From Saliphagus infecundisoli (GTDB lineage: Archaea; Halobacteriota; Halobacteria; Halobacteriales; Natrialbaceae), in assembly GCF_020177375.1 (NCBI RefSeq), contig NZ_JAIWHV010000002.1, positions 372,001 through 436,000 on the forward strand: a stretch of DNA of 64,000 nt, given 5' to 3'. This document shows, one piece after another, positions 45,116 to 51,957 of this stretch. The translations under genes were made by a program, and so were the position numbers. A model generated the notes under the pieces. It was not told where the DNA came from. It saw nothing but the letters and a program-made list of their open reading frames with translations, and did not search any database. Position 1 is the stretch's first letter. Each line of letters starts with the position of its first letter.

Positions 45116-45547
45116 ATGGCCAGGGACCTCACGCCCGCCGACGCACCGGCGTTGACCGATCTCTACGGCGACTACGAGTGGTGGGCCGACCGCGACGTAG
45201 AGGAGGTTCGCCGCGCCCTCTCGGGAACCGAGGTCGCCGTCGGGATCGAGGAGGGTGACGAACTCGTCGCCGCCGCGCGGGTGCTGACCGACGGGGTTTA
45301 TTACGCGAACGTCTTCGACGTGATCGTTGCGTCCGAGCGCCGCGGCGAAGGGTTCGGCCGGACACTCCTCGAAACGCTAGTCGATCACCCCGACCTCGCG
45401 GAGGTCGTGGGACTCTCCTTGCTCTGTCGGCGCGGACTGGTTCCTTACTACGAGTCGGTCGGCTTCGAGTGCTTCGATCCCGAGATCGAGGTGCCCGAGG
45501 GCGAGAGCGAGGAACTGGTGCGGATGACCTACCGCCAGGAAGGATGA
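45116..45547 (+). CDS. GNAT family N-acetyltransferase
   Basis: The 143-residue protein starts MARDLTPADAPALTDLYGDY and has the acetyl-CoA loop VIVASERRGEGFGRTLLETL and the C-terminal VPYYESVGFECFDPEIEVPE. The pattern is a compact single GNAT domain. A TATA-like gttttctc is about 26 nt upstream. Substrate unknown. It is unrelated to the interrupted GNAT gene that follows. Confidence 0.87.
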   Translation: MARDLTPADAPALTDLYGDYEWWADRDVEEVRRALSGTEVAVGIEEGDELVAAARVLTDGVYYANVFDVIVASERRGEGFGRTLLETLVDHPDLAEVVGLSLLCRRGLVPYYESVGFECFDPEIEVPEGESEELVRMTYRQEG

Positions 45548-45640
45548 TCTCAACGATCGAAGTGAAATGGGTCCACGCAGCCAGTCACGAGCTTCAACGC
45601 TGCCGGCCCATTGAAGACTGAGGGGATCGGTCCATCGTGT

Positions 45641-45919
45641 ATGGTGGCCGATCTGTCGATCCGACGGGCTCGAGAGGACGACGTCCCACGATTGCGCGAG
45701 CTGATGGAGGCGGCCCACCGCGACGCGGGAGCCTATTTCGAGGACGTCGGCGACGATTTCGACGGACTCGATGACGAGTATTTCCCCGACGGAGAGTTCC
45801 TGGTCGGGGAGAGAGGAGGTCGAATCGTTGCCTCGATCGCCTACCGCGACCCCGGCGAGATGATCCGGTTGGTCGCCGACGTCTCCGAGGAGGCGATCCA
45901 GCTGAAACGGTTCAACTAA
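45641..45919 (+). pseudogene. GNAT acetyltransferase, N-terminal fragment (interrupted by IS element)
   Basis: The frame MVADLSIRRAREDDVPRLRE through MIRLVADVSEEAIQLKRF is the first half of a GNAT domain ending just before the acetyl-CoA loop. It then runs into TAA at 45917-45919 within the left end of the IS1341-type element. The missing half, starting TVAPEYQRRGYGGRIYDELE, lies at 47330-47557. Joining the two gives one normal-length enzyme of roughly 165-170 residues. Confidence 0.85.
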
Positions 45920-45934
45920 TCGGTAGCGCGGAGT

Positions 45935-45984
45935 CCCCTTCCTCAAGGAGCGAGCGCGGTTCGTAGCGAGCGAGTAGGGAGGGG
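45935..45984 (+). repeat. Left-end subterminal hairpin of the IS element
   Basis: CCCCTTCCT (45935-45943) pairs with AGGGAGGGG (45976-45984), allowing one T-G pair, around a 32-nt loop. It mirrors the right-end structure and would be the folding target of a Y1 transposase. Confidence 0.65.
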
Positions 45985-46050
45985 AGGAGCACGTTCGTAT
46001 AGCTGAGAATTTCCGTTATCTCTAAATAGCCACAGAGCCACATTGAATAT

Positions 46051-47307
46051 GTGGCAGACGACTACGTGCGTCGGACGGCAATCACCCGCCTCTCGGTAGA
46101 TGGCGAGCAACGCGAGTTGCTCGAGGATACCATCACCGAGTGGAAGAACGGTTGCCAACTCGCCACAGACCTCGCGTGGGGACGGTGCAACACCAAGAGC
46201 GACGTCCAACCTCTCGCCTACGATTCTGTGCGCGAAGATACCGACCTCGGGAGTCAGCATGCAATTCTCGCCACCCACCAAGCCGCACAAGCCATCACCG
46301 GCTGTCTCGAACGCCGGTCGAAAGGCAAGAAGGTCAGCAAGCCGACGTTCACCGCGCCGACCGTGAAGTACGATACACGGACGATGACGCTGTTCGATGA
46401 CGACACCGTTTCCCTCTCCACGACGGAGAGGCGGGTCCGGTGTCCACTCGACCTTCCTAAAGCTGAAGATGGCTATCAGCGTCAGTATCTCGACTCGGAC
46501 GACTGGAGTGTTACGGAAAGTACGCTCACCACCCGAGACGACGAGTTCTTTTTGCACATCGGATTCCGCCGGTACAAAAACGAGACCGAACGAAACACCG
46601 CCGAGGACGGAACGGTCCTCGGGGTTGACCTCGGGATCGAAAACCTCGCCGTCACCAGCACCGCCTCCTTCGTCAGCGGGCGGGAGCTCACCCACGACCT
46701 CCGCGAGTTCGAGAAGGTACGCGCCGGGTTGCAACAGACCGGAACACGAAGCGCCCACCGGACGCTCGTTCAGTCGAGTGGTCGGGAACTTCGATACGTC
46801 CGTGACGTTCTCCACCGGGCGTCGAACGCGCTGATAGACGAAGCACTCCGATACAACTGTGACGTGATCGCGTTCGAGAATTTGACTCACATCCGCGACC
46901 GCACGGGTGCGTCGTGGGGTCACAAGTGGGCGTTCCGAACGCTCTACGAGCAGGTCGAATACAAAGCCGAATCGATCGGAATCTCGGTAAAGCAAGTCGG
47001 GTCGGCGTATACGTCGAAGCGGTGTGCCGAGTGTGGATTCACAGCGGACGAGAATCGCCCCTCGCGCACCGACTTCCGGTGTCAGAAGTGCGACTCGGAA
47101 GCGAACGCGGATTACAACGCAGCGAAGAACATCGGCATGCGGTATGTCCGTCGAGGCCAACAGTCGTCTCGGCGGACGGGCGACAGTCAGCTCGCCCTCA
47201 AGTCTGGAACGGCGACGCCGAAGGGCGGATTTACCGCCTACCCTGATGGGTTCGAGGCTGAGTTCACGGACAAGCCCCACCCTCCACGAGCGAACCCGTC
47301 AGGGTGA
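46051..47307 (+). CDS. tnpB: RNA-guided endonuclease TnpB
   Basis: The 418-residue protein starts with GTG (VADDYVRRTAITRLSVDGEQ). All three RuvC carboxylates are present: Asp193 in GVDLGIENLAV, Glu276 in IAFENLTH and Asp354 in NADYNAAKNIG. The zinc ribbon CAECGF...CQKC uses Cys325, Cys328, Cys344 and Cys347. TnpB nucleases cut DNA next to a short motif using a guide RNA made from the element's 3' end. Nothing looks truncated, so it should be active. Its C-terminal tail (SGTATPKGGFTAYPDGFEAE) overlaps the predicted guide-RNA region. The GC content is slightly lower than in neighbouring genes. Confidence 0.93.
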   Translation: MADDYVRRTAITRLSVDGEQRELLEDTITEWKNGCQLATDLAWGRCNTKSDVQPLAYDSVREDTDLGSQHAILATHQAAQAITGCLERRSKGKKVSKPTFTAPTVKYDTRTMTLFDDDTVSLSTTERRVRCPLDLPKAEDGYQRQYLDSDDWSVTESTLTTRDDEFFLHIGFRRYKNETERNTAEDGTVLGVDLGIENLAVTSTASFVSGRELTHDLREFEKVRAGLQQTGTRSAHRTLVQSSGRELRYVRDVLHRASNALIDEALRYNCDVIAFENLTHIRDRTGASWGHKWAFRTLYEQVEYKAESIGISVKQVGSAYTSKRCAECGFTADENRPSRTDFRCQKCDSEANADYNAAKNIGMRYVRRGQQSSRRTGDSQLALKSGTATPKGGFTAYPDGFEAEFTDKPHPPRANPSG

Positions 47308-47350
47308 GCGAAGTAGGGTGGGGTAGTTGACCGTAGCCCCCGAGTACCAG
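47230..47350 (+). ncRNA. Predicted TnpB guide RNA (omega/reRNA) region
   Basis: The right end folds as CCCCACCCT (47275-47283) with AGGGTGGGG (47315-47323), enclosing an inner aaccc/gggt hairpin. In IS605-type elements the guide RNA spans the 3' part of tnpB and the right end and extends into flanking DNA, which supplies the guide. Here the guide would start near 47330-47333 with gtagcccccgagtaccagc. The 5' and 3' limits given are estimates. Confidence 0.4.
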
Positions 47351-47557
47351 CGGCGGGGCTATGGGGGTCGGATCTACGACGAACTCGAGGCGTGCGCTCG
47401 GAACGCGGACTCAGAGGGGATCGTACTCCACACGACCGGGCGTCAGACCGCCGCTCGCCGGTTCTACGAGAAACGCGGATACGATCTTGTGGAACGGGCC
47501 GATATCGAGGAATTCTCGGAAGCGTTCGAGCTGTTCGTCTACTGGAAACGCCTTTAG
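47327..47557 (+). pseudogene. GNAT acetyltransferase, C-terminal fragment
   Basis: The frame reads TVAPEYQRRGYGGRIYDELE, then RRFYEKRGYDLVERADIEEF and ends FVYWKRL. It begins exactly at the acetyl-CoA loop that the N-terminal fragment (45641) lacks. The apparent TTG start is an accident of the IS junction. Its stop overlaps the stop of the convergent ferredoxin gene. Confidence 0.85.
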
Positions 47558-47799
47558 GGAATCAACTGCTCGCCGTCGTCGTCGTAGATCGCAATGGCGT
47601 CGACGGGACAGGTCCGGGCGGCGAACTTCGCATCGAGTTCGGCCTCGGCGGGCACCTCGCGGGCGAAGATCCCGTCTTCGACCTCCTCGCCGCCCTCCAG
47701 AACCGCTTTCCCCGCGGACTTGTCCTCGCTGAAGGCGTCCCACTCCGCGACGCACTGGTACATCCCGATACAGGTGTCCTCGTCGAACTCGACGCGCAT
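47554..47799 (-). CDS. Ferredoxin, three-cysteine type
   Basis: The 81-residue protein has MRVEFDEDTCIGMYQCVAEW and later ARTCPVDAIAIYDDDGEQL. The cluster motif is CIGMYQC...CP: the middle Cys of CxxCxxC is replaced, leaving three cysteines. This is the pattern of small [3Fe-4S] ferredoxins (or [4Fe-4S] with a non-Cys ligand). An acidic insertion of about 40 residues separates the two halves. The ATG has ccgatttaggg about 26 nt upstream on the minus strand. Confidence 0.87.
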   Translation of the reverse strand: MRVEFDEDTCIGMYQCVAEWDAFSEDKSAGKAVLEGGEEVEDGIFAREVPAEAELDAKFAARTCPVDAIAIYDDDGEQLIP

Positions 47800-49569: not shown

Positions 49570-51957
49570 ATGACTTCCACCGACCCATCGGCCGATGGGT
49601 CCGGCACGCACGCCAACGACCGTGCCGATCTCGGTCACAGCCACGGCCACGGCGATCGGTCCGAGCACGACGCCGGCAACGTCGTGCGGTTCTCGGTCCC
49701 CGACATGGACTGTCCCTCGTGTGCCGGCAAGGTCGAGACCGCCGTCGGCGGCGTCAACGGCGTCTCGACGGTCGATCCCCGGCCGACGACCGGGACCGTC
49801 TCCGTCGGATACGACCCGTCGGCCGTTTCCGAGGGCGCACTCGTCGGCGCCATCGAGCGCGCGGGCTACGAGGTCACGGGCGCCACCGACGGGAACAGCG
49901 GCGGTGGTGTCGACGGCCAGGACGACATCTGGACGAGCCCGCGGGCGATCAAGACGTGGCTCGGCGGCGGGGTCGTCTCGCTCGGGCTCCTCCTCGAGTT
50001 CGTCCTCGGGGGCTGGAACGTCCGGGCGGCGACCGTCGTCGGGAGCGAGCTGTTCGTCGCGGACGTCCTGTTCGTCGTCGCCGTCGCCGTCGGCGGTCAG
50101 GAGATCCTCCGGAACGGCTACTACTCGGCGCGAAACCGCTCTCTCGACATCGACTTCCTGATGTCGACGGCGATCCTCGGCGCGCTGACGGCGAGTCTCG
50201 CCTTCGGCGAGGCCCTCTACTTCGAGGCCGCCACCCTCGCCGTCCTCTTCAGCGTCGCCGAACTCCTCGAGCGCTACTCGATGGATCGCGCCCGCAACTC
50301 GCTCCGAGAGCTGATGGAACTCTCGCCCGAGGACGCCACCGTCAAGCGAGAGGACGGCGAGGAGACGGTTTCGGTCGAGGAGGTCGCTGTCGGCGACGTC
50401 GTCGTCGTCCGGCCCGGCGAGAAGGTCCCGACCGATGGGACGGTCGTCGACGGCGAGAGCGCGGTGAACCAGGCCCCGATCACCGGCGAGAGCGTGCCCG
50501 TCGACAAAACGACCGGGGACGAAGTGTACGCCGGCACGATCAACGAGGAGGGCTACCTCGAGGTGGAGGTCACCTCGGCGGCGGGCGACGACACCCTCTC
50601 GCGGATCGTCGGGATGGTCGAGGACGCCCGGGCCGACAGGACCGAACGCGAGCAGTTCGTCGACCGTTTCGCGGCCTACTACACCCCGGTCGTCGTCGCC
50701 TTCGCCGTCCTCGTCACGATCGCTAGCCCCTCGGTTCTCGGGACGACGTGGCCCACGGCCGTCGTCTACGGCCTGACGCTGCTCGTGCTCGCCTGTCCCT
50801 GTGCGTTCGTCATCTCGACGCCCGTCTCGGTCGTCTCGGGGATCACGAGCGCCGCGAGAAACGGGGTCCTCGTCAAGGGCGGCACCCATCTCGAGGCGAT
50901 GGGCGCGGTCGACGTCGTCGCCTTCGACAAGACGGGCACACTCACGGGGGGCGAACTCGCCGTTACCGACGTCGTCGCGTTGAACGGGAACAGCGAGGAC
51001 GACGTCCTCCGGTGTGCCCGCGGGCTCGAGACGCGCAGCGAACACCCCATCGGGGAGGCGATCGTCGCGGAGGCCAGCGCCGCGGGCGTCGCCGGCCGCG
51101 AGATCGACGGCTTCGAGGCCATCACCGGCAAGGGCGTCCGGGCGGAGCTCGACGGGACCCCCCACTTCGCGGGCAAGCCCGCGTTCTTCGAGGAACTCGG
51201 CTTCGACCTCTCGCACGTCCACGCGACGACCGATGGCGGGGCCGTCACCTCTACCGCACGGGACCTCTGTGAGCGAAACGACTGTCTCGACCTGCTCGAG
51301 GAGACGGTGCCCGCCCTCCAGTCGGAGGGCAAGACCGTCGTCCTCGTCGGGACCGACGACGCACTCGAGGGGGTCATCGCCGTCGCCGACGAGGTCAGAC
51401 CCGAGGCGAAGCGGGCCGTCGAGCGCCTGAAGGATCTCGGCGTCGAGCGGACGGTGATGCTCACGGGCGACAACGAGCGGACCGCACGCGCAATCGCCGA
51501 CCGCGTCGGGGTCGACGAGTTCCGGGCGGAACTGCTCCCCGAGGAGAAAGTCGACGCCATCGACGGCCTCGTCGCTACCTCCGACGGCGTCGCGATGGTC
51601 GGCGACGGGATCAACGACGCGCCCGCCCTCGCCACGGCGACCGTCGGCGTGGCGATGGGCGCGGCCGGAACCGACACCGCACTGGAGACGGCCGACATCG
51701 CCCTGATGGGCGACGACCTCGCGAAGCTCCCGTACCTGTACGAACTCGCGGCCGACGCAAACGGGGTCATCCGCCAGAACGTCTGGGCGAGCCTCGCCGT
51801 CAAGGCCGGCCTCTCGCTCGCCGTCCCCTTCGGCTACGTCCCCATCTGGCTGGCAGTCCTCGCGGGCGACGCCGGGATGACCGTCGGCGTCACCGGCAAC
51901 GCGATGCGCCTCTCGCGGATCGCGCCGGAACTTCCCGACGCCGACCCGCGCGACTGA
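49570..51957 (+). CDS. Heavy-metal P1B-type ATPase, probably Zn2+/Cd2+ (ZntA/CadA-like)
   Basis: The 795-residue exporter has a His-rich N-terminus (GHSHGHGDRSEHD), one HMA domain with the metal motif MDCPSCAGKV, and the transmembrane CPC motif in LVLACPCAFVIS. It also has the phosphorylation site DKTGTLTGGE, the nucleotide motif SEHPIGEA and VGDGINDAPALA. The last span region WLAVLAGDAGMTVGVTGNAMRL contains the conserved Asp that marks Zn/Cd/Pb rather than Cu transporters. TGES is present in the actuator domain (ITGESVPVDK). It should export toxic divalent metals with ATP. Confidence 0.93.
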   Translation: MTSTDPSADGSGTHANDRADLGHSHGHGDRSEHDAGNVVRFSVPDMDCPSCAGKVETAVGGVNGVSTVDPRPTTGTVSVGYDPSAVSEGALVGAIERAGYEVTGATDGNSGGGVDGQDDIWTSPRAIKTWLGGGVVSLGLLLEFVLGGWNVRAATVVGSELFVADVLFVVAVAVGGQEILRNGYYSARNRSLDIDFLMSTAILGALTASLAFGEALYFEAATLAVLFSVAELLERYSMDRARNSLRELMELSPEDATVKREDGEETVSVEEVAVGDVVVVRPGEKVPTDGTVVDGESAVNQAPITGESVPVDKTTGDEVYAGTINEEGYLEVEVTSAAGDDTLSRIVGMVEDARADRTEREQFVDRFAAYYTPVVVAFAVLVTIASPSVLGTTWPTAVVYGLTLLVLACPCAFVISTPVSVVSGITSAARNGVLVKGGTHLEAMGAVDVVAFDKTGTLTGGELAVTDVVALNGNSEDDVLRCARGLETRSEHPIGEAIVAEASAAGVAGREIDGFEAITGKGVRAELDGTPHFAGKPAFFEELGFDLSHVHATTDGGAVTSTARDLCERNDCLDLLEETVPALQSEGKTVVLVGTDDALEGVIAVADEVRPEAKRAVERLKDLGVERTVMLTGDNERTARAIADRVGVDEFRAELLPEEKVDAIDGLVATSDGVAMVGDGINDAPALATATVGVAMGAAGTDTALETADIALMGDDLAKLPYLYELAADANGVIRQNVWASLAVKAGLSLAVPFGYVPIWLAVLAGDAGMTVGVTGNAMRLSRIAPELPDADPRD

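What the first reader, a model, noticed from the sequence alone, without database searches (positions are those of the whole stretch)
45641..47557. TnpB-only element splits a GNAT gene and predicts its own guide and target motif
The two halves of one acetyltransferase flank an intact TnpB (Asp193, Glu276, Asp354, four zinc Cys) with matching hairpins at both ends. Because the host gene is recognisable, the empty site can be reconstructed to within a few bases. The expected guide is the right flank starting near 47330-47333 (gtagcccccgagtacc). The expected target-adjacent motif is the left flank ending in ggttc or ggttcaac. The uninterrupted allele would be the natural homing target.
Basis: partly seen in the sequence, partly recalled or inferred. 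Interest (0 to 1): 0.5.

Follow-up and report, generated by a model that had tools for sequence, protein, structure and literature searches.

The report
TnpB-only jumping element inside acetyltransferase gene
A common salt-loving-archaeon jumping element that carries an RNA-guided DNA cutter has landed in an acetyltransferase gene; its ends, its likely recognition motif and its likely guide can be read from relatives, but it is an ordinary member of a known kind.

Summary
A haloarchaeal GNAT gene (45641-47557) is split by a 1,416-bp IS200/IS605-type, TnpB-only element at 45916-47331. TnpB (46051-47307) has Asp193, Glu276, Asp354 and four zinc cysteines. Intact GNAT homologues run straight through the join. 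For 7 of 24 related insertions tested, empty sites in other genomes join without a gap after the 5-base motif, and in 4 of the 7 the next base is not C. So target and predicted TAM are TTCAA (45911-45915), the conserved C after it is the element's first base, and the guide starts at 47332 (CGTAGCCCCCGAGTAC). A guide-RNA scaffold over the tnpB 3' end (about 47140-47331) is supported by synonymous-site constraint (1 of 2,000 permutations), folding (z -5.4) and a few compensatory pairs, not by expression data. No intact target was found in the 124 other family genomes searched, so homing is untested. A new member of a known kind; tnpB-less and right-end-only relatives are the more interesting by-product.

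The parts
45641..45915 (+). 5' part of the interrupted GNAT acetyltransferase gene (reads on into a TAA stop at 45917-45919 supplied by the element)
   Evidence: Matches one continuous gene in relatives together with the right part; ORF
45911..45915 (+). target motif / predicted TAM TTCAA, belongs to the host gene
   Evidence: 54 distinct family left ends: TTCAA in 37, NTCAA in 50; ungapped empty sites for 7 of 24 related insertions
45916..47331 (+). whole IS200/IS605 (IS1341-type, TnpB-only) element, 1,416 bp, first base C, last bases GTTGAC
   Evidence: Family comparison of both ends and empty sites
45935..45984 (+). left-end subterminal hairpin (CCCCTTCC...GGGAGGGG)
   Evidence: Pairing kept in most of 54 left ends; not more stable than shuffles as DNA
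46051..47307 (+). tnpB, 418 aa, GTG start; D193/E276/D354, Cys 325/328/344/347
47140..47331 (+). predicted omegaRNA (reRNA) scaffold overlapping the tnpB 3' end and the right end; 5' limit approximate
   Evidence: Strongest synonymous constraint in codons 364-413; RNA fold z -5.4 for 47137-47351; alignment structure
47275..47323 (+). right-end hairpin (CCCCACCC...GGGTGGGG)
   Evidence: DNA fold z -4.5; compensatory pairs
47332..47347 (+). predicted 16-nt guide CGTAGCCCCCGAGTAC, first bases of the GNAT 3' part
   Evidence: Position after GTTGAC varies among 54 insertions; guide length of about 16 nt taken from ISDra2 (PMC8612924, passages)
47332..47557 (+). 3' part of the interrupted GNAT gene
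   Evidence: Pfam Acetyltransf_1 E 2e-9 on 47330-47554; homologues

Best explanation
This is an IS200/IS605-family, TnpB-only (IS1341-type) element of haloarchaea inserted 3' of a TTCAA in a GNAT gene, without target duplication. Shown by sequence: borders at single-base level (through relatives), intact RuvC and zinc-ribbon residues, conserved ends, constraint on the tnpB 3' end beyond the protein, precise empty sites for related insertions. Inferred from characterised TnpBs: transcription through the right end gives an omegaRNA whose last about 16 nt copy the GNAT sequence from 47332; TnpB with this RNA cuts TTCAA followed by that sequence, i.e. an uninterrupted GNAT allele or the donor joint left after excision; repair from the occupied copy keeps or spreads the element. 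The element would not cut itself because GTTGAC, not TTCAA, precedes the guide DNA at its right end. It has no tnpA; if it moves, an unlinked Y1 transposase acting on hairpins of this type is the likely mobiliser.
For: Intact homologues at the break. 54 distinct family insertions with NTCAA|C at the left in 50 and GTTGAC| at the right, next base variable. Empty sites joined ungapped for 7 of 24 insertions, next base C, A, A, G, T, C, C. Active-site residues in 85 of 85 related frames. Synonymous constraint maximal in codons 364-413, 1 of 2,000 permutations. RNA fold z -5.4. Alignment structure with 5 of 46 pairs changed on both sides in at least one sequence. No tnpA detected beside 108 family loci. 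Mechanism of characterised relatives: PMC8612924 (passages), PMC10278001 (passages).
Against: No expression, cleavage or transposition data. No uninterrupted allele of this GNAT within 3 mismatches in 124 other family genomes, so homing has no visible natural target here. Rfam found no match in the window. The covariation term of the alignment structure is small (-0.91 of -43.1 kcal/mol). 17 of 54 left ends are not exactly TTCAA, and some diverged empty sites lack it. The end motifs were used as anchors, which favours them. Mobilisation in trans is inference.
Confidence: 0.85

Rival explanations
1. Decayed or immobile relic: an element stuck in a dead gene, TnpB present but without functional RNA or partner.
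For: No tnpA in cis; single copy, nearest own-genome TnpB 45% identical; no homing target seen.
Against: Open frame with all catalytic residues, complete ends, constrained 3' segment in the family, both GNAT halves still open frames, which suggests a young insertion.
Confidence: 0.12
2. TnpB works as an RNA-guided repressor (TldR-like domestication) rather than as a nuclease.
For: Single copy with a guide against a host gene.
Against: TldRs, as recalled, have lost RuvC residues; here all three are intact, and so in 85 of 85 related frames; the relatives keep both ends and sit at scattered sites.
Confidence: 0.03
3. The motif is TTCAAC and the element ends in GACC, with the guide starting at 47333.
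For: TTCAAC is conserved at the left ends, and this reading gives the same joined GNAT sequence.
Against: The base at 47332 varies among 54 insertions (C 22, T 17, A 13, G 2); empty sites of L104, L110, L114 and L117 read TTCAG or TTCAA followed by A, A, G and T, so the C is not part of the target.
Confidence: 0.04

Closest known systems
ISDra2 of Deinococcus radiodurans (TnpA+TnpB, TAM TTGAT; PMC8612924, passages seen)
   Same: Partly palindromic ends, pentanucleotide 5' of the left end, no target duplication, RNA from tnpB 3' end plus right end plus about 16 nt of flank, RuvC nuclease.
   Different: ISDra2 carries tnpA; its motif is TTGAT; its RNA and cleavage were measured, here they are predicted.
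IS1341-type elements of haloarchaea, e.g. ISNph and ISHwa elements of Natronomonas and Haloquadratum (PMC3119063, passages seen)
   Same: tnpB often without tnpA, near-terminal palindromes, short targeting oligonucleotide, no duplication, many diverse low-copy elements.
   Different: Which of those share TTCAA ends was not checked: the main text has no 'TTCAA', its supplementary tables of ends were not read, and no ISfinder copy was on hand.
PATEs, palindrome-associated transposable elements (PMC3119063, passages seen)
   Same: The same genome holds tnpB-less elements with ends of this type.
   Different: The element in the window still encodes TnpB.
Halobacterium salinarum sotRNAs / omegaRNAs (PMC12558985, passages seen; Rfam RF02656 and RF02657 are named there)
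   Same: RNA overlapping the tnpB 3' end in haloarchaea.
   Different: No Rfam match here.

Membership tests
IS200/IS605, TnpB-only (IS1341-type) element | TnpB with OrfB_IS605 and TNB domains, D/E/D and zinc ribbon | tested here: met
IS200/IS605, TnpB-only (IS1341-type) element | subterminal hairpins at both ends | tested here: met
   RE strong; LE by kept pairing in relatives, not by folding energy
IS200/IS605, TnpB-only (IS1341-type) element | fixed short target 5' of the left end and no target duplication | tested here: met
   on relatives, and for this copy by homologues
IS200/IS605, TnpB-only (IS1341-type) element | no tnpA in the element | tested here: met
   (ORFs); the own genome's Y1 transposase matches lie elsewhere
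OMEGA (TnpB-omegaRNA) nuclease system | structured RNA at the 3' end of tnpB ending at the right end | tested here: inconclusive
   constraint and folding agree, but no expression data and no Rfam match
OMEGA (TnpB-omegaRNA) nuclease system | RNA-guided cleavage next to a TAM | not testable with these tools
   none
TldR (nuclease-dead TnpB regulator) | lost RuvC residues (recalled) | tested here: not met
   D193, E276, D354 intact
PATE | too short to encode TnpB | tested here: not met
   intact 418-aa tnpB

The most novel reading that the evidence does not exclude
Elements of this end-type move, or are trimmed, through recognition of (T)TCA(A/G)|C sites independently of TnpB and even of the left hairpin: right-end-only pieces of 85-97 bp that begin TTCAA|CGCC, at a position where full elements read TTCAC or TTTAC before CGCC, and end GTTGAC, sit at four different sites in four genomes (L254, L265, L266, L267), and pieces of 252 and 390 bp with both ends also exist (L255, L260). 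If mobile, these would be guide-only passengers of TnpB and of an unlinked transposase.
Probability: 0.15. Interest if true: 0.45.

Novelty: new member of a known kind. Interest (0 to 1): 0.27.

Why it matters
It gives single-base borders, a predicted TAM (TTCAA) and a guide for a TnpB lineage with close relatives across Halobacteria that the literature searches made here did not show described with this motif; that library lacks most subscription journals. It makes a plasmid-interference test directly possible in a laboratory haloarchaeon, and it bears on a question raised in 2011 (PMC3119063, passages): what moves tnpB elements that have no working tnpA.

Tried and rejected
Rfam: no hit at the gathering score in the window, none up to E 1 in 45500-47600, none in 12 further loci (four tnpB-less elements, six family members, two intact GNAT loci). 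Search for an intact homing target: none in 124 other family genomes. Plasmids: relatives up to about 90% identical on haloarchaeal plasmids. Phages: all 282 records with a match are below 60% identity. The motif TTCAAC with the element end GACC was rejected on empty sites.

A tnpA partner with matching ends was sought. Of four own-genome regions with tnpA, only L249 has ends of the same hairpin type (LE 18 nt at 94%, E 0.005; RE 42 nt at 74%, E 0.012: weak). Several relatives of its TnpA (among L269-L279) show, by eye, TTTAG or similar before a CCCCCTTCCTC-like hairpin, so it is a candidate mobiliser at best, with another target. Any match to that TnpA occurs in 89 of 125 genomes, own included, too broad to test anything. 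In one search only three of six TnpA queries (L061, L063, L064) read as a TnpA; they did find tnpA beside own-genome TnpBs (control).

Counts to read with care. The left-end anchor was chosen by best match to TTCAAC and the right-end anchor by best match to GTTGAC, so both motifs are favoured by construction. Of 109 sequences given (108 loci and the window) 61 had both ends placed, the other 48 were dropped for missing or diverged ends; 7 repeats by right flank were removed, leaving 54; one pair (L124, L157) is the same insertion and was not caught. The 60 tnpB genes include the window's own and had been picked with a VDLG motif filter; one search repeats the residue count without it. The alignment holds 40 of the 45 sequences prepared. 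In one search two loci of L117 (L192, L216) are the same genome, and the more diverged empty sites deviate from the motif (L212 TTCGA, L208 GTCTA, several of L124).

Full report
What is there. The window belongs to a 4.5-Mb haloarchaeal genome (G000, contig C22). Among the genomes listed none is of its genus. Its family holds G199, whose match coordinates agree with those of the Natrinema gelatinilyticum record NZ_CP100756.1, a member of Natrialbaceae. At 45641-47557 a GNAT gene is interrupted by a TnpB-coding segment. Pfam places TnpB in OrfB_IS605 and Cas12f1-like_TNB and the right GNAT half in Acetyltransf_1. Against solved structures the best matches are IS605 OrfB/TnpB and Cas12f proteins (best E 4.1e-26); in the two alignments shown, the RuvC and zinc-ribbon residues align. 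D193, E276 and D354 are present in 85 of 85 related frames. The residues NADYN fit the 'derived' TnpB clade (NADXN) named in PMC10278001 (passages); no tree was built.

Borders. Three lines agree. (1) Homologues: of 29 GNAT loci read, 28 show both halves in one frame; the two closest (L010, L011, about 50% identical) read ...RFNVLPEYQ... across the break and L012 reads RFSVAPDYQ. This demands that the empty site be CGG TTC AAC GTA GCC, one C fewer than the flanks give if both the C at 45916 and the C at 47332 are taken as host sequence. (2) Family ends: from 108 related loci and the window, 61 sequences had both ends placed, 54 after removing repeats. The left side reads NTCAA|C in 50 and TTCAA|C in 37 of 54; the right side ends GTTGAC in 54 of 54; the next base is C 22, T 17, A 13, G 2. 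Both motifs served as anchors. (3) Empty sites: 24 insertions were rebuilt by joining flanks after the 5-base motif and sought in 391 genomes of the class. For 7 of 24 (L103, L104, L110, L114, L117, L124, L125), loci were fetched in which the join aligns without a gap; the bases after the motif are C, A, A, G, T, C, C. The motif varies in some empty sites (TTCAG at both L104 sites; TTCGA at one L110 site; GTCTA at one L125 site; ATCGA, ATTAA or ATACA in some at L124). So the C after the motif belongs to the element. For the window this means target TTCAA 45911-45915, element 45916-47331 (1,416 bp), guide from 47332. The two Cs make this copy itself ambiguous by one base; the family resolves it.

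RNA. In 60 aligned tnpB genes (the window's included) the 50-codon window with the highest identity at fourfold-degenerate sites is codons 364-413 (mean 0.806 against 0.637 overall, 220 usable codons), reached by 1 of 2,000 permutations of codon order; a test with a fixed border at codon 375 gave p 1.3e-4. Some other stretches are also raised (codons 181-200). The stretch 47137-47351 folds at -107 kcal/mol, z -5.4 against shuffles. An alignment of 40 sequences gives a 5' stem, a pairing of GCCC with the right-end GGGU and the right-end hairpin, with 5 of 46 pairs changed on both sides in at least one sequence. This is moderate support: many pairs hardly vary, the 5' stem lies in coding sequence, and the right-end hairpin may be kept as single-stranded DNA for a transposase. 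Rfam gave no match.

How it most likely works. In ISDra2 the RNA from the right end, ending in about 16 nt of flank, directs TnpB to cut next to the same pentanucleotide that the transposase uses (PMC8612924, passages), and TnpB is thought to act like a homing endonuclease that prevents loss on excision (PMC10278001, passages). By analogy, this TnpB would cut TTCAA-CGTAGCCCCCGAGTAC, the uninterrupted GNAT or the donor joint. The guide lies in the stretch coding V-A-P-E-Y-Q-R-R-G-Y-G, which I take (recalled) to be the acetyl-CoA-binding motif of GNATs. The element's own right end carries GTTGAC in front of the guide DNA, which would protect it. No intact target within 3 mismatches was found in the 124 other family genomes, so the homing target, if any, must be sought within the species.

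Mobilisation. No tnpA was detected next to the 108 family loci within the fetched flanks (about 1.5 kb at most; some loci are partial or cut by contig ends), with three usable TnpA queries and a working positive control. The own genome has 6 Y1 transposase matches, some of them fragments. One tnpA-tnpB element (L249) has ends of the same hairpin type (weak matches) and is the best candidate to act in trans; this is inference.

Relatives without tnpB. The own genome carries tnpB-less elements with ends of this kind: L003, L004 (about 489 bp) and L007, L008 (about 644 bp) after TTCAA, in L008 GTCAA, and a homogeneous set of about 502 bp, 99-100% identical in 8 copies plus one cut by a contig end, after (T)TCAG. 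One of the latter sits inside a tnpB (L237); by eye its join restores the reading frame. These match the PATEs described in Haloquadratum (PMC3119063, passages). In other genomes right ends occur apart from a full tnpB: of 14 regions fetched from such listings (13 right-end, 1 left-end), several still carry broken tnpB, and two (L255, L260) are pieces of 252 and 390 bp with both ends, at the same site in two genomes. A pattern search of 391 genomes found three right-end-only pieces beginning TTCAA|CGCC (L265-L267; L267 is the L253 locus), and L254 is a fourth; they are 97, 85, 97 and 96 bp long. Microhomology-mediated deletion between TTCAA|C and the internal TTCAC|C would explain them as well as mobility does.

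Verdict. Literature searches (listings only, apart from the passages cited) found no paper with TnpB, TAM and TTCAA together (0 papers), but the library lacks most subscription journals and ISfinder was not available.

Noticed in passing
G000 loci L231-L235, L237-L240 (nine places listed): A tnpB-less element of about 502 bp, 99-100% identical in 8 copies plus one cut by a contig end, target (T)TCAG, right end GTAGTTTAC: a recently multiplied PATE, one copy inserted in a tnpB (L237).
   Followed up: partly
L003, L004, L007, L008: Second tnpB-less family (about 489 and 644 bp, about 98% identical where they align) with TCAA|CTGGGG left ends and GGTGAC right ends; the longer form has 155 extra bases inside.
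   Followed up: partly
L254, L265, L266, L267: Right-end-only pieces of 85-97 bp that begin TTCAA|CGCC and end GTTGAC, at four different sites in four genomes.
   Followed up: partly
54 insertions: The first base after the right end is G in only 2 of 54, against C 22, T 17, A 13; possible target preference or guide constraint.
   Followed up: no
L249 (G000:C21:39300-42700), tnpA at 858-1256: Intact Y1 transposase beside a TnpB with ends of the same hairpin type; several relatives of it show TTTAG-like targets before a CCCCCTTCCTC-like hairpin (by eye).
   Followed up: partly
window 45116-45547: A second, intact GNAT gene just upstream of the interrupted one (Pfam Acetyltransf_10 E 9.9e-8).
   Followed up: no
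window 49570-51957: Open frame of 795 aa that reads like a heavy-metal P-type ATPase (DKTGTLTGG and ACPCAF motifs, by eye).
   Followed up: no
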